A stretch of 64,000 bases of DNA from Tubiluchus corallicola (Eukaryota; Priapulida; Priapulimorpha; Priapulimorphida; Tubiluchidae), in contig JAQGDQ010000427.1 in the NCBI GenBank assembly GCA_030141605.1, positions 124,001 through 188,000 on the forward strand, in the 5' to 3' direction. The notes under the pieces are model-generated. The model was given only the letters and a program-made list of their open reading frames with translations. It had not been told where the DNA came from and made no database searches. Position 1 is the first letter of the stretch, and the number at the start of each line of letters is the position of its first letter. This document shows positions 1 to 63,988 of this stretch, in pieces. Position numbers and translations under genes: made by a program.

Positions 1-845
1 ATTTCTGGAATTGTCCAGCAAATACTGATAGACATGTACGTGGATAATATGATTATGGGGATTGATTCCACTTCTGCTGCCTAAGCAATTCAGTTTTATA
101 TTGAAACAAAACTGATATTCAAAAAAGCAGGAATGAATCTTCGTGAGTGGGCTTCTAACTTTCAACCATCGATGGACAACTAGCAGACAATTGCACTAAT
201 GGAAACTCCATGAAAGTCCTTGGTTTAAAATGGAATACTCTACTTGATCGTCTCGTGGATTGCTACAGTTTCCAAAATGCACAGATAAAGTGCCAAGTGC
301 TAAAAGTGACTCCATTAATCTTCGGCCCACTAGGGATTGTGACACAATTGACTCTGCTTGCAAAACTTTTATTGGCAGACCTGTGGGCTCACAAATATAC
401 ATGAGGCAGCTCCTTATCACCAGATCATCCAGGACAAACAGAATCAGATTGCACATCTTCAGGCACCTATCCTATCCTCATTTCTGATTCCCAATGTGTG
501 CTGTACCCATTTGGTAGGTAACAACAAAGCCACTATATTGGTATTTGTACTTTTCGGTATATTTCAACCATCTCTGTGACATTGACATAAACAAACACAC
601 AATTCCTAATAAACTGTTCCGTGTAAGAGCTTATGTCTTTTGTGCCAAGAAGAAGTTCAAAGATACAAGTGTTATTGGAATACTCACAAAGGAAGAACTT
701 AATCTTGTTAAAGTGACCTGGATAAAACACGCCCAAAGCAAAGAATTCTTCATCAAGGCTCCAGAACATTCACTTGAAGAGGGAAAAACAGACGGCTACT
801 TTGATCAAGGATTTAAGACAGCAAAATCCAACGCTTGATGACCAA
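1..845 (+). pseudogene. BEL/Pao retrotransposon pol remnant (RT to start of integrase)
   Basis: Conceptual translation on the plus strand shows a BEL/Pao polymerase fragment running in from beyond the left edge. It contains a reverse transcriptase active-site segment YVDNMIMG (canonical YVDD, second Asp changed to Asn), then FKKAGMNLREWASN, then KVLGLKWNTLLD and a DPLGIVT-like stretch, all typical of BEL RT. About 480-560 most of the RNase H region is deleted compared with the inverted copy at 3011-5330. It resumes with TKEELNLVKVTWIKHAQS, the segment before the integrase zinc region. Stop codons and frame changes are frequent, so it is dead. In a live element this protein would copy the RNA into cDNA. 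Family assignment is firm, boundaries approximate. Confidence 0.8.
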
Positions 846-2250
846 TTCTCCTTCCACGACAATGCTATTTCACAAAACTGGTGATAAAATACGTCCAACG
901 ACTATTGGATTCTGGATGGTAAGTGTTGCGACAATGTACACACGCTGACGTACGGAAGGCCCTCTTTACTGCCTGGCAGAAATGCCAGCTCTGCCATCAG
1001 AGTGGGTCTGGCGACCTAAACCATTTTGACATGTTGGTCTTGACTACAGGAAAAGAACATCACTAGACAAATGTAAACGTTGTTTACAAAAATTATGTCA
1101 GCACTTTAAATTCTGACACCATTTATGATATGTGGAGCAGCTCTTGTGATATAGGGCGCTTTCGTTATGATACCACAAACACTTTTTTTCTACTAATTTC
1201 TGATACATGCTGACACGTGGGTTCAGCGAACCTTTCCATTTAAGCATAGTTCACAGTCGACTGATGGTCAAGTGTCACGTACCAAACCAGCTTGAGAAAT
1301 TATCTACAGTTTACAGAAAAAGTTGTGTTTGCCTTTCTAGTTTTTTGGAAACACGAGCAGTGCATCTAGAGCTGGTGATTGACATGCGCACAGAATTTTT
1401 GCTAGCATTTCGCATATTTGTTGCAAGACAAGGTTGTCCTGACACCACCATCAGCGATAATGTAGACCAATTTCATCTAGCCAAACAAGCTTTGGACACC
1501 CATTTCACAAAACCATGATGTCTCAAGACGTTCAAAAACACTTTGCACGTGAGAATATCAAATGGAAATTTATTGTTGCAAATCACCACAGTCACCAATA
1601 CGAAAGACTGGTTGGACTGGTCAAACGTTGCTTGTAAAGATCACTTGGGACAAGAGTCTTAACCAAACATCAGCTAATCACAGTACTGGCTGAAATTGAG
1701 ATGGTACTCAACAACCATCCATTAATATACCTGGACCAAGGTATCAATTCTAGTAGATTTCATTACACCAGCTCACTTTCTAACATTTCACTCACTTAAC
1801 CTTGTTGCCTCAAATGAACAACTCAAAGAACATACAGATTACAAACCAAACACTTCCAATAAAGACAATTTGAATGAAAGCTGGAAAAGTGAATTTCCTT
1901 ATTAGTCTCATTCTGGTCTACATGGCAAAATGAATATCTATTAAGCTTGTGTGAACACAATCAGTCACAACATCGACAATCTCGATCATTATTCCCCCAA
2001 GCCCCAAAGTTGGCGATATTGTATTAATACAAGATAACTTGCCCAGAGGACAATGGAAATTGTGGCACATCACTGAACTTATTTCAGCCCGAGATGGCCA
2101 AGTTCGTGCCACACAAGTTCGCACAACAAAGGGCTATCTCATTGAACGTTCACTCAAATACTTTTATCCCTTGGAATGTGCAGATAATATACATGATAGT
2201 CATGACAGATTTCAGAAAAGAGACACTTCTGTACCATCATGTATTTCTAA
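846..2250 (+). pseudogene. BEL/Pao pol remnant: integrase core and DUF5641-type C-terminus
   Basis: Continuation of the same plus-strand element. Readable pieces in order: an LLP-type pre-core segment near 845-890; a VGLDY start of the integrase catalytic core near 1030; ETRAVHLELVIDMRTEF near 1350-1395, a hallmark of BEL integrases; ISDNVDQF near 1450 carrying the second catalytic Asp; YERLVGLVKRC near 1600 with the catalytic Glu; LTPAHFLTF-like near 1770; and VGDIVLIQDNLPRGQW from about 2009 to 2180, matching the DUF5641 domain that ends BEL polyproteins. The frame changes several times, and an unrelated LTR fragment (1131-1258) sits inside the core. The catalytic triad is recognisable but the gene cannot be translated. 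Confidence 0.82.
1131..1258 (+). repeat. LTR 5'-end fragment nested in BEL integrase
   Basis: About 128 bp beginning TGTGGAGCAGC align, with scattered mismatches, to the first part of the LTR at 63199-63988. The shared stretch includes CGCTTTCGTTA and ACCACAAACACTTTTTT and ends near AGTTCACAG. It breaks the BEL integrase reading between the start of the core and the HLELV motif. Only the 5' end of the LTR is present. Confidence 0.6.
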
Positions 2251-2879
2251 TACCTCAGAACGCAAAAAAGAAAAGGCAGATTTACTTTAACTTTTCTTGT
2301 CTACTGTTGATTATGTTTTCCATTTTTTGTGTATGTGGGTTGAGTATGAGACTACGATTTGGGGTAAAATACATATTGTTAAGTTAAACCATGTATTCAT
2401 CCACAGATTTCAACTGATTAACACGAACATCGCAACTTCAAAAACAGTCTAATCGACCTGCCAATGTCAGTTGTTGGTTCTCTGCAAAATATTCCAGTGA
2501 CAATTCTAGCATCACGATAAGGCTTGCCCTCTGCTGTTTGTGTGTGTGTGCGTGTGTGCGTGTGTGCGTGTGTGTGTGTTTTGGTTATCTGTAAATGTTT
2601 TCAGCTTTATTTTTATCGTTTTGCTAAAGAACTGAGTAACAGGTGAAGTTGCTGCCAGATGCTCTTGCTTAAAAGCTTGGTATGCAGTAACTGTGCCAAA
2701 CAGTTTACGTGGCGTACAAACTTGTGCAAGCCACAAACTGGTATTAACCAAAGAAATGAGGAACTGCCTGCTGTACATGATGTTGATAACGATGAAAATC
2801 ATGATCTACTCGAGTCTTAATTATTTAACACCAAATTAAAATGCGACATCTAGGTATTTGTTGTGTAAGTGTGACTTTT
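2251..2879. other. Unassigned sequence after BEL pol, with a (GT)n array
   Basis: No gene is seen. A (GT)n/(CGTG) microsatellite occupies about 2537-2580. This is where the 3' LTR of the plus-strand BEL copy would be expected, but no matching second LTR is visible, so no LTR is called. Confidence 0.5.
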
Positions 2880-3010: not shown

Positions 3011-4465
3011 GGTGTTAGGGATAGTTTTTGCTGTGGACGGACTTTATCACCAGCTTTTTGAAATAGCGTTGTCGTGGAAGGAGAATTGGTTCACTGGTTG
3101 CTTGTGTAAGTTGTGCATCTCCAATGCGACCTTTATCGCATCATCATCGAGCGTTTGATTTTGCTGACTTAAACCCTTGATCAAGTAGCCGTCTGTTTTT
3201 CCCACTTTAAGTGAATGTTCTGGAGCCTTGATGAAGAATTCTTTGCTTTGGATGTGTTTTATCCAGGTAACTTTAACAATATTAAGTTCTTCCCTTCCGA
3301 GTGGTCCAATGACACTTGTACCTATAAGCTTCTTAGTGGCACAAAAGACATAAGCTTTGACACGGAACAGTTTATCAAGAATTGTGTGTTAATTTATGTC
3401 AATGTCACAGAGATCACAACAATAAAGTTGAAGGCTTATTATCATGCACTAAGTAATGTGTTTCAAAGAAGATTTGTGTTTCGTTCTTTGTTTTGGTTTC
3501 TGGGAGAAATTTATCCATCTGGTTTCAACAGATGCATGGCACAATCTCGGCATGCAGTTTCATCTTCCATCAAGAACTTGGGTTCATGAAGCCAAATGGA
3601 TTGGTCAAAATATTGACATCCGATGTTGCTCTGGTTACCACATCTGCTGGATTCAGCTTGGTTGAAATATACTGAAAAGCAAGTACCAATATAGTGGCTC
3701 AGTCATTAGCAAAAGAGGATTGGATCTAAAAGTGCGATATAGAGTTCCTTTTGAAAAATTTTAAGAACTCGTGTTCCTATAAGAGCAGTCAGCAGTTCTA
3801 ATCTTGGTATTTCAGATTTTCTTGGTGCCAATCTGGTTTTGCAAAAATATCAGGTTAGTTGATTTGTTTGTTGGATCAGTGCATCCGATGTAGGTACTTG
3901 CTACGTATGCTCTCTTGGATGCATCAACAAAGCATAACAGCAAATAAGCTGCCTGTTCACCTCATCCAAAATAAAGCAGAATTACAAATGAAATTATAGG
4001 TCCAGAAGATGTACAATCTGATTCCATTTGTCCTGGATGATCTGGTGATAAGGAGCTGCCTCATGTATATTTGTGAGGCCACAGATCTGACAAGAAAAAT
4101 CTTGCAAGCAGAGTAAATGGTGTCAAAATCACTAGTGGGTCGAACATTGATGGAGTCACTTTTAGCACATGGCGCTTTGTCTGTGCATTTTGGAAACTGT
4201 AGCAAGCCACAGAAGCAATTCCGAGACAATCAAGTAGAGTGTCCCATTTTAAACCAAGGACTTTCACGGAGTTTCCATTTGTGCAATTGTCAGGTAGCTG
4301 TCCATCGATGGTTGAAAGTTAGAAGCCCACTCACGAAGATTCATTCCTGCTTTTTTGAATATCAGTTTTGCTTCATTATAAAACTGAATTGCTTGGGCAG
4401 CAGAAGTGGAATCAATCCCCATAATCATATTATCCACGTACATGTCTATCAGTATTTGCTGGGCA

Positions 4466-4583
4466 CTGCGGCCATATCACGTTGAAAACTCCGGTTCTCG
4501 TCTGATCACCGAAGTTAAGCAACGTAGAGCCTGGTTAGTACTTGGATGGGTGACCACCAAGGAATACCATGTGCTGTGGGCTT
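4466..4583 (+). rRNA. 5S rRNA-derived sequence (head of the SINE-like element, probably not a functional 5S gene)
   Basis: The segment runs from CTGCGGCCATATCACG to GTGCTGTGGGCTT and follows the 5S rRNA order throughout: CATATCACGTTGAAAAC, CCGGTTCTCGTCTGATCACC, the A-box region GAAGTTAAGCAACG (about 4511-4524) and the C-box region TTAGTACTTGGATGGGTGAC (about 4535-4554). The internal Pol III control region is well kept. It starts about two bases into a normal 5S and carries several substitutions (for example ACCACCAAGGAATACC). No T-run terminator follows; the transcript would run into the insertion body. Flanking target duplications argue for a retroposed unit rather than a 5S array member. 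Confidence 0.75.
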
Positions 4584-5007
4584 GCGGGATGCCCACACTG
4601 TATCTCGACGATAGGCAGAGGAGATGCACAAGCAGAGCAGAGGCGGTCAAGTGACCCAATAGCCATGTGTTGAAACCTTCCAAATCAGGGGTGGAGCCAA
4701 CGAAGGCGGACCAGTGCAGCATGCTCACTGACTCCGGCAGCTCCTGCATCCAACCTGGTGCCAAACGTATCGCTTCGCTTTCCTCTGGACTACACCATGG
4801 AGGAAGAGAGGGGGTTCCTGTTGTCTGGGTAACTCAGGATCTCCATACACCTTGCCCAGGCGTGTGCCCTGGAGAGACCACTCCAGTGGTTCAAGGATCG
4901 GACTGCTCAGCCACAGTCAATACTGCAGCTCCATCAATGTGATCGATAACTGACTCTCTTGGCGCATGCTCCATTGTCTTCCGAGACAGAAGGATGCCAA
5001 AAACAAC
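4466..5007 (+). mobile_element. 5S rRNA-headed SINE-like insertion (SINE3-type candidate)
   Basis: A 542-bp insertion splits the minus-strand BEL reverse transcriptase. It is flanked by 12-bp direct repeats ATTTGCTGGGCA (4454-4465) and ATTTGCTAGGCA (5008-5019), differing at one base. The plus-strand BEL copy near position 15 keeps the uninterrupted site. The first 118 bp are 5S rRNA-like, the next about 410 bp are an unrelated GC-richer body with no ORF that I recognise, and the 3' end is a short A-rich tail, GCCAAAAACAAC. A Pol III-type head, an unrelated body, an A-rich tail and a target duplication are the layout of SINE3-class elements, which use a 5S promoter. The family itself is not recognised, and its partner LINE is unknown. 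Confidence 0.72.
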
Positions 5008-5019
5008 ATTTGCTAGGCA

Positions 5020-5409
5020 ATTCCAGAATTTGTCTGTTTCAGATGATAGGCCACGGTGGCATTTAGAAGAACTGGCTACTGACGACACCAGAGTGCACTA
5101 GTGTAAAACGGAAAATTTAGTGGCTGTCTTTGTCAATAGTTGGTATGGATAGGTCTTTCATCCAGAGAAATCTGGTGACATCCCTCTCTGCATGTTGTAA
5201 TGCAACTTGTAAGAATGTTTTTGTATGTCTGCGCTCAAGGCTGTTTCATGCAGCTTAAAACGGGCTGTTTTGGAAAATTGTTTCTAAGCTTGCTACCATG
5301 TGTGAAAAAACTACTACCTTCACAGAGAAGCTAAGTAATCCCGTTACATACAAACATATAGCCGCACTACAAAATGTACTGAGAGATGTCTGCACTGACT
5401 TCGTGGTAA
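5020..5409 (-). other. Remaining BEL RT upstream part and junction with gypsy
   Basis: About 5020-5330 belongs to the minus-strand BEL RT already described. The last stretch, 5330-5409, has no clear similarity. It ends in the left target duplication GTAAT (5405-5409) of the gypsy element. Confidence 0.5.
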
Positions 5410-5757
5410 TTGTTGTGCAGATCGCTGGCATCTATTAGAATTACGTTAGAATAATCGTCTTACAGTGTAAAATGTTCTGGAACAAGACTTCTAGAAGCTT
5501 CTCAGGCACGCTATATAAGGCGAAGCAGGCCACTGAGACACACACACAGATTCATATGGATGCCACTTACACAATCTCTTGTATACTTGTATTTTCAGAT
5601 ACACTTAAACGCTTTCCAAATTTTCACGTTTATTGTAAACATTTCGCATTCCTTCATACTTTTGTGTTGTAGAATTTTCGCTTAATTAACTAGTTTAATT
5701 TGATGACGTGTTTTCTGGTTTTCTCTACGAGCCTTCCGAAAGAAGCAAAACACAACA
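5410..5757 (+). repeat. 5' LTR of the gypsy element
   Basis: A 348-bp LTR with TGTTGTG and CACAACA ends. Compared with the 3' LTR it lacks about 24 bp after GCATCTATTAGAATTAC and has extra bases before the end. It carries the TATA box CTATATAAGG at 5511-5520. Its GCTTAATTAACT replaces the AATAAA seen in the other LTR. Confidence 0.9.
5511..5520 (+). promoter_or_regulatory. TATA box in the 5' LTR
   Basis: CTATATAAGG is conserved at the same position in the 3' LTR (9959-9968). It is the expected Pol II core promoter that would start the element's RNA. Confidence 0.6.
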
Positions 5758-5760
5758 ATA

Positions 5761-5777
5761 TTGGCGCAGTCAACAGG
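5761..5777 (+). other. Primer-binding-site region of the gypsy element
   Basis: TTGGCGCAGTCAACAGG begins three bases after the 5' LTR, where the tRNA primer binds in LTR elements. I did not match it to a specific tRNA. Confidence 0.45.
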
Positions 5778-5830
5778 ATCCTTGGTAACTCAGTGGACAG
5801 TTGTTTATTCAAGCAATGATGGCAGAGTAG

Positions 5831-6424
5831 ATGGGCGAACTTATCAAGCTCCTCTGCCAACAGATGCATCAGCTCGTGCAGCAACACACAGAAGATATGG
5901 ATGCTATGAAAAGGCTGCCTCAGGCTCGAACTCCAGAGAATTACAGCTCGAGCACCCACATAAAAACCTACATCAGCGCTTACAGCTGCCATTCCACCAT
6001 TTGCTGCTTTCAATCCAACTTCTGAACTGTGGTATGACTAATGGTCAAGATTTTGTACCTTCGTGGCAGCCAACACAGTGCCTGACCAACGCAAGGCTCA
6101 AGTTTTCCAAACAAATCAGACTGCTGCCATCTACAAACACCTGGCGAATCTAGCAACTCAACAGTCTCCATCCAAGGATATCAACGAACTGACAATTGAC
6201 GAAGTTGTTGACTTTATGAAGGAACAGTTTGACATGAAACTCTTCGTTGTGCGAGAACGTTTCAAGTTCTGGAGTGACATGTAACGGAAGCCAAACGAAA
6301 CTCCTCAGGAGTTAGCAGCCAATATATGCCAATAAGTTGCTACCTGTGACTTTTCTTCAATCCAAGACCCACAAGATGAAGCTCTGAGGCAGAGATTATA
6401 TGCTCTATCAACAACGAAGCTGTT
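5831..6424 (+). pseudogene. gypsy gag remnant (capsid region)
   Basis: Gag would form the particle that packages the element's RNA. The putative start MGELIKLLCQQMHQLVQQH is followed by a frame change near 5990. The reading continues as IPPFAAFNPTSELWYD, a stop, then VAANTVPDQRKAQVFQ through KFWSDM. Further stops fall near 6040, 6282 and 6333. The capsid signature is the pattern of invertebrate gypsy gags (FNPTSELW..Y, then Q.FQTNQ). At least one frameshift and three stops make it non-functional. The zinc knuckles lie in the next reading frame. Confidence 0.75.
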
Positions 6425-8494
6425 TTGATGGCTATCTTCAAAATCAAGGATGAAGATCTGACTTTCGCCTGTGCTATTCAAGTCGCTACCGAGACTGAAG
6501 ACATGGCAAATGCTGTCAAGGAAACTGTTTACGGTTCCAAGACCAGGCCCGTCAACAAAGTCAAGCTGAACCAGAACAAGGATCAACGAAAGAACCCTAA
6601 GCAGTCACATTTCACAGATATGGATACAAAGTGCTACAAAGTGAAACGCCATAAAGTGACTGACTGTCCCAACAAAGATGCCAAGTGCCATTTCTGTGAC
6701 AAGAAAGCACATTTGGAGGCTGTTTGCATGAAGAAGCAGCGACAGCAACGGGACCAAAAATCTGGAAAGTCAGTGAGGAAAATCTGGAAAGATGAGCTTG
6801 TCAAGGTGATCCTCGGTGAAGTTCCCGAAGATTCTCCTAGTTTGGATGTCAAAGTCAACATCCAAGACCAACAGTTCAAGATGGAACTTGACACTGCAAC
6901 CTCCGGAAATTTCGTTTCAGTGCTGATCTGGAAGCAACTAGGCAAGCTAAAGCTGGATGACGTCAGACATCGCTACGAGTCTGCCAGCAAGCACGACCTG
7001 CCCGTGCTGGGAACTTTCATGGGCCAGACCAAGGATCCAAAGACTGGCACACAAAGCTCAATTCCTTACATTGTCATCACCAAGATCCCTGACCTGAACC
7101 TGCTTGGACGAAATGCTATCCAGAAGCTGGGAATTTCTATGAACAATGCTCTAGGACTCATGGAGAGTCAAGACAAGAGCACGGGTGTAAAAACATCAAG
7201 TCCAGAGACTTGTTACACGTCTTACGCTTCCTTGCAACGAGATTGCCGCAACTTGTGTGACGAGTTCCCAGATCTCATCAAAGAAGAATTGAGGTGCCTT
7301 AAGGACTTTGAACTGGAAGAGAAGTTTAAGTCTGACGAGAAGCCGGTTTTTCACAAGGCACGACCTGTTCCATTCGCTCTTCGAGATGACCTGGCCAAAG
7401 GTTGCGAAGAAGTCATCGCCAAAGGTGTCTGGAAGCCAGTCCAGTTCAATGAATACGGAACGACAGCTGTACCTATTCATAAAGCTTACACTCCGGGCAC
7501 TCAGAAGCTCAAATTGCGGATCTGTGGTGACTACTCAGTCGGCATCAACGATCAGCTAGAGGACCACCATCATTCGATGCCACTCCCAGAGGAACTGATG
7601 CAGAAGCTGCGAGGCAGATATGGCTACACAAAGAACGACCTTGCTGATGCCTATAACCAGATTAAGCTGGCACCCGAGAGCCAATGGAGGCTAGCTCTCA
7701 GTACCCACCATGGTGTACTCCTGCAGCAACGACTTCCTTTCGGAATCAAGTCAGCGCCTGGTTACTTTCAGGAGATCATGGAGAACCTGACTAGTGATCT
7801 GCCTGGAGTCGCCGTCTTCCAAGACAATATGATCTTCAGCGGGCAAGATGCAAATGATCACCTGAGCAACCTGAGATGCTTGCTCACTCGTCTGAATGAC
7901 AAAGGACTCAGATGTCGTAGCAAAAACTGCTTGTTTGTACAACCAAGTATTGAATATCTTGGACACACCTTATCGACCAAAGGAATTGCGAAAGGATCCA
8001 AGGTCGAGGCAGTCATGAAGATGCCACCTCCTACAGACGTCTCAAGCTTGAAGTCTTTCTTGGGCTTGGTTCAGTTCTACGGGAAGTTCATCCCTAACCT
8101 GGCTACTATGGCAGAGCCTCTTTACCACTTGACCAAGAAGACAGTCCCCTGGAATTGGGGAGATGAGGAGCAAACAGCATTTCAACTGTTGAAAAATGTG
8201 CTATCCTCAGATCAAGTCCTTGTGCATTTCGACGCAGACAAGCCTCTGGGATTGGCTTGTGATGCGTTCAAAGTTGGAATTGGAGCTGTCCTGTTTCATC
8301 TCTATCCGGACGGAATTGAGCGCCCAATTGCTAATGTGTCCAAGACTCTCACAGCTGCAGAAACGAACTATAGCGAAATACACAAGGAAGCCCCAGCCAT
8401 TATCTTCGGCTTACGGAAATTCTACCAGTACCTCTACAGGCGTCATTTCACACTGGTGACTGATCGTAAGCCACTGACTTCACTCTTCGGATAG
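6425..8494 (+). pseudogene. pol: gypsy pol part 1: zinc knuckles, protease, reverse transcriptase, RNase H
   Basis: A 689-residue open frame. Residues 70-101 are a degenerate double zinc knuckle (the second, CHFCDKKAHLEAVC, is better kept). DTATSG at 156-161 is the aspartic protease motif. RT spans about 310-560: motif A KNDLADAYNQ with Asp405, LPFGIKSAP at 438-446, and motif C FQDN at 465-468, where the usual YxDD has lost its second Asp to Asn, so RT should be inactive. The connection and RNase H follow, with Asp613, Glu655 and Asp680 in the expected contexts. The frame ends at a stop right after TSLFG. In family members the protein continues, here in another frame from 8500. The start at 6425 is only the first ATG after gag stops. 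Confidence 0.9.
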
Positions 8495-8499
8495 AAGAA

Positions 8500-9294
8500 A
8501 TGGACCCACTTCTTCCAGCTAATTGTCTAGCTCGGTGGGCCCTGTGGCCAAACCAATTTGACTACACCATCGAGTACCGGAAAACAGCAGATCACGGCAA
8601 TGCAGATGCCCTTAGTCGTTTGCCATCTGGAGACGACAACGACTTCGACAGGGAGGAAAATGGTGAAGACATGGACATGGTGTGTGCCATTAAAGTTCAC
8701 AGTATTCAAGTCAAGCCTGTGGATGCCAACATGCTCCGACAAGAGTCAGGGAAAGATCCAGTGCAAGCTATGGTCATGGCTAGCCGACGATGTGACTCAT
8801 GCAGAGAACATCAGAACAGGCTATCCAAGCCTGCAGTTCACCCATGGATGCTACCAGAGAAGCCATGGAGCCGCTTACACCTGGATCACACCATAAACTC
8901 CATGGGTACGAACTGGCTGGTGATCACGGATGCTTACTCAAAGTATCCTTGTGTTCACCCTACGTCTTCCACGTCCACTAGAGCCACTCTAGATTTGCTG
9001 GAAGAGGACTTTGCTCACTTCGGATTACCTCACACGCTGATCACAGACAATGCATCAACCTTCATGTCTGATGAGTTCCAGAGCTGGTGCAGAGAACATG
9101 GGATCACACATCTCACAGGAGCACCATACCATCCAGCTACCAACGGAGCAGCAGAACGATTGGTGCAGACATTCAAGCAAGCACCCAGGAAGTCTTCTCT
9201 GCCCCCGAAGCGAGCTCTTCAAGAGTTCCTGATGCAGTACCAGAGAACACCGACATCCTGTGGATTCTCTCCGAGTGAACTCTTGATGTTTTAG
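8500..9294 (+). pseudogene. pol: gypsy pol part 2: end of RNase H and integrase core
   Basis: A 264-residue frame continuing part 1 after a frameshift. Residues 1-46 finish RNase H (FDYTIEYRKTADHGNADALS). After a linker, VMASRRCDSC joins the middle of the integrase zinc domain directly. The His pair and the first half of the HHCC domain are deleted, and only the CxxC (98-101) remains. The catalytic core keeps its DDE residues: Asp129 (LHLDH), Asp183 (ITDNAS) and Glu219 (GAAERLVQ). The frame stops at SPSELLMF. The matching region of the family carries on at 9395 in a different frame. Confidence 0.9.
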
Positions 9295-13500: not shown

Positions 13501-14171
13501 TATGTCCAAATTTCATTATGTATTTATGAATAACACTTTAATCAGCAGTAATTCGTAGCTGTTTTTCATTGGGAGCAGATGAATTATTCACATTTTGTTG
13601 ATCCACGATTTGTTTTTTACATATCTCACTCAGAAATTTACATTTATAATAAATTAGAAATAAAGTGATCAACGCTTGCGCATTTTGCGCAGAATCTGCA
13701 TCCGAAAGCTGTCGCGTTTCATTAAAGGAAGACAGGATGATGTTTCATATACCACAACATTTTCAAGTCCGATAAAAAGTATACATTTTAACACGACTGA
13801 TATTGCAAAAGGGTTCTAATAATTAAATAAATAAATAAATAAATAAGATTAAAAACTTAAATAACGGCGGGGAGCCCAACTATTGATGACATCACTAGCT
13901 AAAATAATTTTCAACAGCAAAAATATTCCATGGGCGTGTTGCACGTATTTGTGAAAGAGAAAATTGAAGGACAGCGCTGCTGTAAGATATTCAGTGTGTT
14001 GTTGTACTAAAACTAGGCAAGGTTTAAGATAAAAATTCAAATTTCAAATTTACCGCTGTCCTCGCGCATTAGCTGTCGAACGTGCGTAATTCGTCCCAAA
14101 CTAACACATCTGAACTGAGAGGTACAGTGGCTGTTTTTTTGTGCAATACGTTTCCGGAATGCAGGCGTTAG

Positions 14172-15360: not shown

Positions 15361-15568
<208 letters not shown>

Positions 15569-15814
15569 AATTCTTTACTGAAAATAAATATTTACATATA
15601 TAATTATATATGTGTATAATAATTAATGACAGATTCGATATTATTTTTATACAGCATTAAATGTAATTTTCGTTGTAAAATGGTGTGAAATCGTGAAAAA
15701 TTCAAACCAACGTAACTCGTCAAACGCTAAATCGAAAATCAAAATGGCGGATGACGAAAACGTTAATATAAATTAAAGGAAACTATTGGAAATTTCCACA
15801 GTGAGGTCAACAGA

Positions 15815-21713: not shown

Positions 21714-21874
<161 letters not shown>

Positions 21875-21960
21875 AAATATCATTTTTGTCAGCGTGTATA
21901 AAACGAACTGTATTTATTTTTTATATCACCGAGATTGATAGCCTATCAAATCAACATCTA

Positions 21961-34929: not shown

Positions 34930-35450
34930 TTGAAAGAAAACATAAGACAATTTCACGTTCGTGCCACTAGTTCTTCGCTGTTACATGCGTTTCGTCATAT
35001 GCTAGTTAGACGGGCAGTAGCGCCTGTATTCCGGAAACGCATTACACAGAAAAACAGGTGCTGTACCTCTCAGTTCAGGTGTGTTAGTTTCTGGCGAACT
35101 ACACACGTTGGACAACTCATGCGTGAAGACAGCGGTAAAGTTAAAATTCTAAAGTGTATTTCTAAGGTGAATCTCCATCTGCATAATTTTAGTACAACGG
35201 ACTGAATATCTTACAGTAGCACTGTACCCCAATTTTCGCTTTCTCAAACACGTGTAACGAAAGTTGTTTTGATATCATTAGTTTTATAGTTGGGCTCGCT
35301 GGCCGTTAACTAAATTTTTAATCCATTATTTAATTATCAGAAATGCTTTTGCAGTATCAATTGTGTTAAAATGTATACTTTTTATCGGATATGAAAATGG
35401 GGTAGTATGTGAAAAATCATCCTGTCTTCCTTTCAGGAAAAATTCGTTGC
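34930..35450 (-). repeat. Dispersed family B, minus-strand copy
   Basis: Reverse complement of the family B core: CAATTTCACGTTCGTGCCAC, GGAAACGCATTACACAG, CTGTACCTCTCAGTTCAG and GTGTTAAAATGTATACTTTT. Not interrupted by the hAT or MADF insertions seen at 14 and 54 kb. Confidence 0.75.
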
Positions 35451-43908: not shown

Positions 43909-43978
<70 letters not shown>

Positions 43979-44409
43979 TAATAATAATAATAATAATAAT
44001 AACAGTAATAATAATAATAATAATAATAATGATAAATGGTTAATATATATATATATATATATATAGAACATATAGGAATAGGCACTATTAAAACTGTTAC
44101 AATATAAGTTTGGAAGTTAAATAAATCATACAAGATTAAACTGCTCTTGAATCTCTTTGCTCTGCGTCTAGGTAAGTGGTTTTTGATGGTGGTGAGTGCT
44201 GTATCTATGAATATGGGCATCTGGCAATAGAGTGTGGATTTTGATATTAAGATTTTGAATTGATGAGAAAAACTTTTTGCAAGAATTTTGGCGACAGTTA
44301 AGTAAAGGTTGAAGATCAGAGTAGAGCCAATCTGCATAGTTATCATTTGAAAAAATATTTTCAATGAACGTTTTTGAACTGTTTCTAACAAATCAGAGAT
44401 GAGTGTCAT
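43890..44409 (-). pseudogene. LINE ORF2 C-terminal fragment, inverted copy
   Basis: The minus strand reads LLETVQKRSLKIFFQM followed, through frame changes, by FKSSLILYDLFNFQ near the end. It is the counterpart of 21259-21540 and has the same 3' UTR and (ATT)n tail. Compared with the plus copy, the reading frame is broken at different places. Confidence 0.75.
43908..44064. repeat. (AAT)n array, LINE tail, and adjacent (TA)n
   Basis: (AAAT)n/(AAT)n at 43908-44031 with CAG and AAC interruptions, and (TA)n at 44043-44064. Confidence 0.9.
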
Positions 44410-62699: not shown

Positions 62700-63198
62700 G
62701 GCTTTAGTGGTTGGAATTACCCACTCATAGGCGTGAGAGAATCTGCTACAATATTATCTTTTCCAGCAATATTCTCTACAGTAAAGTGGAATTCTTGCAA
62801 AATAAGCGAACATGTACAAAGACGGCGATTATTTCTCTTCATGCGTGGGAGTTCTAGCAAACTACGTTGGTCAGTTCGTACTATGAACTCATGACCTTTT
62901 AAGTAGTAACGTAACTTAGATGCAGAATACACTACTGCCAACAACTCAATTTCCACAACACTATAATTTCGCTCACACGTAGTCAACTTTCTGCTTACAT
63001 GTGTAATTGGCACCTCACCTAACTCACTCTGTACTTGTGTCAGCGCTCCGCCAATACCACTAAATGAAGCATCAGTTGTTAGAACGAATTTCTGCGAAAA
63101 ATCAGGTGAGTGAAGCACCGTATCTGAGTTTAGTGCAGTGCGCAGTTCTATAAAGCTGCGTTCACACTCTTCATTCCAGTCAACATGTATGTGATATA
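62700..63198 (-). pseudogene. Ty3/gypsy RNase H fragment (second gypsy lineage)
   Basis: Minus-strand ORF (62717-63211), about 160 residues: DWNEECERSFIELRTAL, VLTTDASFSGIGGALTQ, THVSRKLTTCERNYSVVEIE, LLAVVYSASKLRYYL, FIVRTDQRSLLEL, FTVENIAGKDNIVADSLT. All four acidic RNase H residues are present (Asp47, Glu89, Asp114, Asp157). The sequence is clearly different from the gypsy at 5.4-10.2 kb. Its RT side is cut off by the LTR at 63199 (the first four residues of the ORF come from the LTR), and its integrase side is not recognised below 62700. Confidence 0.88.
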
Positions 63199-63988
63199 TG
63201 TGGTGTACCACCTGTGATGTAGGACGCTTTCGTTACGACACCACAAACACTTTTTTGCTACTAATTTCCGATATGTGCTGACGCGTGGGTTCAGTGAATC
63301 TTTCCATTTAAGCATAGTTCACAGACATGTATTCCAAATAGAACCAAATAAAACAGTTTTTAATATTACCGATAAATTCTGTGTTTAATGAGATAATAAG
63401 AAGTAAAAACAATTTACTTTAAACCAAAACAACAACAAACTTGTTATAATTACAAACAACGTTTCTAGACAATCTACGATAATCAGAAGACTAGTTAGCC
63501 CCAACCCAGGTGAAGGAGAAGGATGTGAGGTAAGTATACTTATCAGTTGTAGTCGGAAGTGCAGTCGGAAGCTGCCGGTTTCCAACGCTTGACGATCTCC
63601 ATCACTCTGGCAGCTTGGAATAACGTGACTAACCGGTTATGCGACCTTCGTCGAATCTTGAGCTGTTACTCTTCCAAACCTCAGCAGGGGGTGGAATCTT
63701 ACGTGGTAACTTCTACAACGCTTGTCAGGTGTACCGAAGTCGTAATTGGTTACTTCACCAATCCTAGTGGAGTGCAGTGGAGTCCTGACCCGTGGAGTTC
63801 GCGGAACTACCATTGGTACTCCGTCTGGTCATAACCTGGTTGTTTCTGCACCGGATCTCCTGTACTTCCGTTTACAGCAGTACGTCTAATAAGGAATAAA
63901 AGCCAGTTTATTGGTGTTTCCGCCTCACGGCTCGAACACCTAAACCTTTGGTGTGTCTGTGCCCTTTAAATCACTTTCTGTCGCCACA
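63199..63988 (+). repeat. LTR (solo LTR or 5' LTR running off the window)
   Basis: 790 bp beginning TGTGGTGTACC and ending CTGTCGCCACA, giving TGTGG...CCACA inverted ends. AATAAA at 63895-63900 lies about 90 bp from the 3' end, as in an R-U5 region, supporting the plus orientation. The first about 128 bp recur at 1131-1258. The left flank (GATATA) and right flank (GTAATTAAGTCT) show no target duplication, so a solo LTR is unproven; only 12 bp follow before the window ends. Confidence 0.6.

What the first reader, a model, noticed from the sequence alone, without database searches (positions are those of the whole stretch)
4454..5019. A 5S rRNA-headed SINE-like element caught inside a BEL reverse transcriptase
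A 118-bp 5S-like head with intact-looking A and C control boxes, a 410-bp non-5S body, a short A-rich tail and 12-bp flanking duplications (one mismatch) interrupt BEL RT. The second BEL copy in the window gives the empty site. 5S-derived SINEs (SINE3 class) are known in few animal lineages, so a member here, especially in a mollusc-like genome, could be a new family.
Basis: partly seen in the sequence, partly recalled or inferred. Interest (0 to 1): 0.75.

Follow-up and report, generated by a model that had tools for sequence, protein, structure and literature searches.

The report
Young 5S rRNA-headed SINE family
A stretch of DNA that starts as a near-perfect copy of the animal's own 5S ribosomal RNA gene has become a small parasitic copy-and-paste element with many copies in this genome: a new family of a known kind.

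Summary
Window 4466-5007 is a non-coding retroposon inserted in a BEL/Pao element, with 12-bp target duplications (one mismatch). A second BEL copy at the window edge shows the empty site. Its first ~119 bases match 5S rRNA over the full model (96.2 bits). The body is not 5S spacer in the loci read. 42 further places hold complete or nearly complete copies (two may be one insertion). Of 40 rows aligned, 37 lie 1.3-5.1% from their consensus; these are best-scoring hits, so age is biased low. Target duplications (7-16 bp) reach the threshold in 18 of 37 copies against 12 of 1332 mismatched flank pairs. The consensus head differs from the closest host 5S genes (2 of 8 compared) at one site, position 97: G in 11 of 11 genes checked, A in 40 of 40 copies. 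This points to one capture of a host 5S gene that lost its T-run terminator. It fits SINE3 (5S-headed SINEs) on the features tested. The partner LINE was not found: 26 of 26 tails read upstream were this SINE. The host was not identified, so "mollusc" is untested. Verdict: a real new SINE3 family, ordinary in kind.

The parts
4454..4465 (.). left target-site duplication ATTTGCTGGGCA
   Evidence: mismatched-flank control
4464..4582 (+). 5S rRNA-derived head; its first two bases overlap the target duplication
   Evidence: RF00001, 96.2 bits; family consensus head 119/120 identical to the closest genomic 5S genes
4517..4531 (+). box A of the 5S internal promoter (position by recalled vertebrate 5S numbering)
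   Evidence: sequence AAGCAACGTAGAGCC
4533..4538 (+). intermediate element (recalled numbering)
   Evidence: sequence GGTTAG
4544..4561 (+). box C (recalled numbering)
   Evidence: sequence GGATGGGTGACCACCAAG
4583..4958 (+). family-specific body, not 5S spacer, no known RNA family
   Evidence: shared by the copies; absent from the ten 5S loci read; no other Rfam hit at E<=1
4959..5000 (+). 3' stem-loop
   Evidence: fold of 4940-5007; consensus folds alike; not unusually stable (z -1.05, 32 of 200 shuffles as stable)
5001..5007 (+). short A-rich tail, a degenerate form of the family's (CAA)n tail
5008..5019 (.). right target-site duplication ATTTGCTAGGCA
3957..4465 (-). BEL/Pao retrotransposon piece, the insertion target
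   Evidence: PF05380 at E 1.8e-5 on the 4061-4318 frame; no Pfam hit on frames 4267-4476 and 3957-4229
1..470 (+). second BEL/Pao copy, inverted relative to the first, with the empty site near its end at positions 1-23

Best explanation
4466-5007 is one member of a SINE3-type family of about 560 bp. Shown: a head copied from the host's own 5S rRNA gene, a family-specific body, a 3' stem-loop and a (CAA)n tail, dispersed, with 7-16 bp target-site duplications in about half the copies and some 5' truncations. Inferred: RNA polymerase III starts at or near base 1 from the internal 5S promoter (boxes A, IE, C) and reads past the 5S end, because the T-run terminator of the true gene is missing. It then stops at a T-run in flanking DNA. 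A LINE reverse transcriptase recognises the stem-loop and (CAA)n tail and inserts a copy by target-primed reverse transcription. The one head difference from the closest host 5S (G97A), present in all 40 copies aligned, points to one founding capture followed by amplification.
For: 40 near-full-length places (the window's own at 100%, 39 others at 86-90% identity to it) out of 2179 first-look candidates, of which 40 were scored. Of 39 copies read with flanks, 25 have CTACGG at the expected start (7 of the 39 read GTCTACGG there, as the 5S gene does), and 24 have GCCAACAAC at the tail. Divergence from the 40-row consensus is 1.3-5.1% for 37 rows; the others are the window copy 6.2%, L046 6.4% and the rearranged L040 8.7%. 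Target duplications score 8 or more in 16 of 37 copies against 4 of 1332 mismatched flank pairs; 10 or more in 9 of 37 against 0 of 1332. Position 97 is the only difference from genes L076 and L077; it is G in 11 of 11 genes checked and A in 40 of 40 copies. All 11 genes run into TTTT, while the SINE consensus reads GGCTTGCGGG there. No TTTT in the consensus, nor inside 37 of 39 copies. One SINE head (C660) scores 115.2 bits as 5S, against 119.8 for the best genes. Of six tails read 300-450 bp, L085, L087 and L090 stop matching at consensus 299, 245 and 292.
Against: No partner LINE found: upstream DNA of 26 of the 40 scored tail matches was read and 26 of 26 were this SINE. 19 of 37 copies gave no duplication scoring 7 or more. 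14 of 39 copies lack an exact CTACGG at the start and 15 of 39 lack an exact GCCAACAAC tail. Consensus bases 1-2 of the head are weakly fixed (commonest letter in 21 rows, next in 12 or 15). Lack of TTTT is weak evidence: 67% of dinucleotide shuffles also lack it. Neither the 3' stem-loop nor the whole element folds markedly more stably than shuffles (z -1.05 and -1.11). In inserted copies the head is not better conserved than the body: 4.66% against about 3.4% from consensus, promoter stretch 3.52%. The copies were the best hits to one copy, so divergence, and hence age, is biased low. No transcript data.
Confidence: 0.93

Rival explanations
1. A 5S gene or pseudogene with its own spacer, a stray unit of a tandem 5S array.
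For: Tandem 5S arrays exist in this genome (contigs C779, C643, C140), and the head is up to 99% identical to those genes.
Against: In the ten 5S loci read (L072-L081) only consensus 1-120 (and a 7-54 relic) matches; the body does not. The insertion has target duplications and an empty site.
Confidence: 0.01
2. A TRIM with a pol III promoter (Cassandra/Ajax type): an LTR retrotransposon miniature with 5S in its LTRs, or a solo LTR of one.
For: Ajax and Cassandra carry 5S in LTRs (PMC10886601, first part of the text and passages).
Against: No long terminal direct repeat at the window copy's ends. Duplications are 7-16 bp and varied, not the 5 bp reported for Ajax. Some copies are truncated at the 5' end. 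Copies with a good duplication start within the first three bases of 5S, and the family ends in (CAA)n.
Confidence: 0.02
3. A one-off chimeric retrocopy made by template switching from 5S RNA to another RNA.
For: Template switching is proposed for the birth of HaSE3 (PMC3272025, passages).
Against: 43 places share the same head-body structure, and 40 of 40 aligned share the G97A change.
Confidence: 0.005
4. A SINE whose head is no longer the working promoter, for instance one copied passively from pol II transcripts.
For: No transcript data; the head is not extra-conserved in inserted copies.
Against: The consensus head keeps the whole 5S gene with one change, and 18 of 18 copies with a good duplication start within the first three bases of 5S.
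Confidence: 0.04

Closest known systems
SINE3 class (zebrafish SINE3 and other vertebrate families; Kapitonov & Jurka 2003, recalled and cited in PMC7245038)
   Same: 5S-derived head with A/IE/C promoter, body, LINE-like 3' end, variable target duplications (class features partly recalled)
   Different: Vertebrate families are said to be moved by CR1-clade LINEs (PMC7245038 passage). Here the tail is (CAA)n with an unidentified partner. Sequence relation of the bodies was not tested, as no Repbase copy was available.
Lepidopteran 5S SINEs HaSE3, PxSE4, PxSE5 (PMC3272025, PMC8010984, passages read)
   Same: 5S head, body, LINE-derived 3' end (HaSE3, PxSE5), flanking duplications
   Different: PxSE4/5 promoter regions share about 63% with Bombyx 5S and the elements are 389 bp long. 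This consensus head is 99% identical to the closest host 5S genes over its full length, and the element is about 560 bp.
Ajax and Cassandra (TRIMs with 5S in their LTRs; PMC10886601, first part and passages)
   Same: 5S sequence as presumed pol III promoter of a retroelement
   Different: Those have LTRs; Ajax makes 5-bp duplications and has a primer-binding site. No LTR was seen here and duplications are 7-16 bp.
'5S' SINE line of the Octopus vulgaris repeat table (PMC13282606, passages read)
   Same: A 5S-class SINE annotated in a mollusc: 1 family, 7 recently active insertions
   Different: No sequence shown in the passages read, so no comparison was possible.

Membership tests
SINE3 (5S rRNA-derived SINE) | head derived from 5S rRNA with internal pol III promoter boxes | tested here: met
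   RF00001 96.2 bits; 119/120 identity of the consensus head to the closest host 5S genes; box positions by recalled numbering
SINE3 (5S rRNA-derived SINE) | dispersed multicopy family with uniform head-body-tail structure | tested here: met
SINE3 (5S rRNA-derived SINE) | variable-length target-site duplications made by target-primed reverse transcription | tested here: met
   18 of 37 at score >=7 against 12 of 1332 control pairs; lengths 7-16, median 11.5; the mechanism itself is inferred
SINE3 (5S rRNA-derived SINE) | no protein coding | tested here: met
   longest stop-to-stop frame 95 aa in the consensus, 118 aa in the window copy; no homologue of the one body frame searched; the frames were not scanned against Pfam
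SINE3 (5S rRNA-derived SINE) | 3' end shared with a LINE of the same genome | tested here: inconclusive
   26 of 40 scored tail matches read upstream; 26 of 26 are the SINE; none in a 200-kb sample
SINE3 (5S rRNA-derived SINE) | pol III transcription | not testable with these tools
   no transcript data; promoter and terminator layout only
TRIM with pol III promoter (Ajax/Cassandra) | two LTRs around an internal region | tested here: not met
   no terminal direct repeat in window 3500-6000 beyond the target duplication
TRIM with pol III promoter (Ajax/Cassandra) | fixed 4-5 bp target duplications | tested here: not met
   7-16 bp
tandem 5S rDNA unit | body equals the spacer of a 5S array | tested here: not met
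   only positions 1-120 (and a 7-54 relic) match in the ten 5S loci read

The most novel reading that the evidence does not exclude
The head keeps the complete 5S rRNA gene, both ends of the closing helix included, with one fixed change. It may therefore be kept for more than its promoter: the SINE RNA could fold as 5S, bind 5S-binding proteins (TFIIIA, ribosomal protein L5) and dock near ribosomes, where it could catch a freshly made LINE reverse transcriptase, as Alu is thought to do through its SRP-like fold (recalled). The plain alternative, that the family is just too young to have lost it, is more likely.
Probability: 0.08. Interest if true: 0.7.

Novelty: new member of a known kind. Interest (0 to 1): 0.4.

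Why it matters
5S-headed SINEs are less common than tRNA-headed ones, and heads such as those of PxSE4/5 have drifted far from 5S (about 63% identity, PMC8010984 passages). Here the consensus head is one base from the closest of the host's own 5S genes, the terminator loss is visible, and one diagnostic base separates the 40 copies aligned from the 11 genes checked. That makes the birth of a SINE3 directly traceable. It also warns that 5S gene counts in this genome can be inflated by SINE heads: one head scores 115 bits, close to the best genes at 120.

Tried and rejected
5S array spacer, TRIM/LTR and single-copy chimera were tested and rejected (5 and 82; 21). A tRNA-like second head was looked for and not found (ARAGORN on the consensus; Rfam at E<=1 on the window copy). 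Protein relatives of one body frame: none. IMG/VR: 4 hits for an 18-base tail pattern; against the SINE consensus they share only those 18 bases at 16 of 18 (E 0.81), so they are chance. A body pattern gave 0, and a tail pattern in the prokaryote genome set gave 0. A 200-kb sample (20 stretches of 10 kb from seven contigs that hold a copy elsewhere; 2,500 bases of one stretch read N) held no copy. A weak 40-bp 5S-like match in it (L061:5037-5076) had no Rfam support at E<=0.1. The host organism was not identified: the COX1 search meant to help did not complete, nor was the tail pattern search.

Not done: sequence comparison with Repbase SINE3 consensuses (not held), the known conserved SINE domains (V, CORE, Deu, Nin, Ceph, Snail, Meta; no sequences at hand), and Matetovici et al. 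2016 on mollusc SINEs (not held).

Full report
Observation. Rfam finds 5S rRNA at 4464-4582 on the + strand with 96.2 bits over model positions 1-120; no other family reaches its gathering score in the 64-kb window, and no other reaches E 1 in 4400-5100. The insert is 542 bp (4466-5007), flanked by ATTTGCTGGGCA and ATTTGCTAGGCA. A second BEL copy lies inverted at the window start, 90% identical to 3996-4465, and reads across the site without the insert. It runs off the window after 11 more bases, of which 10 match.

Copies. Window:4466-5007 searched against its own assembly (343.5 Mb, 2344 contigs) gave 44 matches: 40 full or nearly full places, including the window itself, and 4 fragments. 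The other 39 are 86-90% identical to the window copy. 2179 candidates passed the first look and only 40 were scored, so the count is a lower bound. Three more copies turned up among five 5S loci fetched later. That makes 43 places, of which L035 and L036 share identical flanks and may be one insertion. None was found in 20 x 10 kb of other sequence from seven contigs. Of the 39 fetched copies, 25 start exactly with CTACGG, 7 of the 39 read GTCTACGG there as the 5S gene does, and 24 have GCCAACAAC at the tail, often followed by further AAC units. The rest differ by mutation, truncation or rearrangement.

Target duplications. I scored the best direct repeat between the left flank and the sequence after the tail in 37 of 40 copies. 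Dropped beforehand: L036 (same flanks as L035), L037 (TA-repeat flank) and L040 (rearranged 5' end). A score of 7 or more was reached by 18 of 37 true pairs and 12 of 1332 mismatched pairs; 8 or more by 16 and 4; 10 or more by 9 and 0. Lengths at 7 or more are 7-16, median 11.5 bp. 19 of 37 had no duplication at that threshold. Of six tail matches read 300-450 bp, L085, L087 and L090 stop matching at consensus 299, 245 and 292 (L090 with a rearranged piece beyond), L086 has an internal deletion and a 5' cut at 61, and L088 and L089 run to about the end of what was read. Variable duplications, 5' truncation and a short-repeat tail are the usual marks of target-primed reverse transcription by a LINE (general knowledge).

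Origin of the head. The genome has ordinary 5S genes: tandem on C779, C643 and C140 and others elsewhere, up to 119.8 bits; 12963 candidates passed the first look and 47 were scored, SINE heads among them. Eight genes were compared base by base and three more checked at position 97 and the 3' end. All 11 continue with a T-run, and none of the ten 5S loci read shows the SINE body, so the body is not 5S spacer there. The SINE consensus head equals the gene type of L076 and L077 at 119 of 120 positions; the other six genes differ at 2 to 4 positions. Consensus bases 1-2 are weakly fixed because copies often start a base or two into the 5S. The one difference, position 97, is G in 11 of 11 genes and A in 40 of 40 copies. 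The simplest reading is one capture of a host gene, loss of the terminator at the junction GGCTT|GCGGG, and amplification from one lineage. 37 of 40 rows are 1.3-5.1% from the consensus; since they are the best hits to one copy, older copies are under-sampled, and I did not convert this to years. The head of inserted copies is not better preserved than the rest (4.66% against about 3.4%; promoter stretch 3.52%; 38 rows), so there is no sign of selection on copies after insertion.

Mechanism. Inferred from parts: pol III starts near base 1 from boxes A, IE and C (positions by recalled vertebrate numbering). It reads the whole element, since the consensus has no TTTT; that is not significant by itself, as 67% of shuffles also lack it, and 2 of 39 copies have one. 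It ends at a T-run downstream, found within 150 bp of the 3' end in 32 of 39 copies. The 3' 42 bases fold into a stem-loop in both the window copy and the consensus, though not markedly more stably than shuffles. The expected partner LINE should share this end. I read upstream of 26 of the 40 scored tail matches (1545 candidates), and all 26 continue as SINE; five more of the 40 coincide with SINE places. So the LINE is either rarer than the SINE, more diverged at its end, or absent from the best 40. This is the main gap.

Variants. Two subfamilies differ by 12 bp at consensus 431-442: 8 of the 40 aligned rows are of the short type, and so are 15 of the 20 tail-selected pieces by the same pattern. 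L020 carries two extra tandem copies of the 3' module (from consensus 344) and L040 one rearranged extra module. L089 has its tail duplicated.

Known relatives. SINE3 is described from various vertebrates and some insects (PMC7245038, passages read; PMC3272025 and PMC8010984, passages), and 5S-related SINEs from Aspergillus (PMC5063351, start of the abstract in search listings only). A bivalve survey's curated SINEs were V, Meta, MIR, Deu, Core and seven unclassified, with no 5S class named (PMC10294476, passages). An octopus repeat table has one 5S line (PMC13282606, passages). PMC10886601 was read in its first part and in passages. Eight paper searches listed no paper whose title or abstract start describes this family; only open-licence papers are held, and Repbase entries are not. 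Membership in SINE3 is met on the testable features. The LINE-shared tail is inconclusive and transcription is untested.

Noticed in passing
window 6380-9294 (+): A Ty3/gypsy-type retrotransposon with reverse transcriptase, RNase H and integrase domains in two overlapping frames; described only.
   Followed up: partly
window 62717-63232 (-): Another RT RNase H piece of a retrotransposon (PF17919, PF17917).
   Followed up: no
L020 (G000:C1698) and L040 (G000:C693): The SINE's 3' module (from consensus 344) is repeated after the (CAA)n tail with the same junction in both places, a possible seed for a satellite or a multimeric variant.
   Followed up: partly
L073, L074, L075, L077, L080 (and L079): A 48-bp relic of 5S (positions 7-54, 81-83% identical) lies 65 bp after several but not all 5S genes, in the same orientation; in L079 a relic has no listed gene just before it. 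L073 and L077 overlap and share one of these.
   Followed up: no
L078 (G000:C2123) versus the C779/C643/C140 genes: At least two 5S gene types exist: the L078 type with ACGTCGGGCC around box A, and types with CGTAGAGCC; the SINE head matches the latter.
   Followed up: partly
window 15411-15575, 21715-21887, 43909-44035; 13717-14170: Short repeat arrays shared within the window, and a repeat at 13717-14170 with relatives near 35018, 53442 and 57558 (list cut at 80 lines).
   Followed up: no
window 1955-2287 (+): A + strand frame with PF18701 (DUF5641, E 1.8e-8), probably part of a BEL-type element (recalled association).
   Followed up: no
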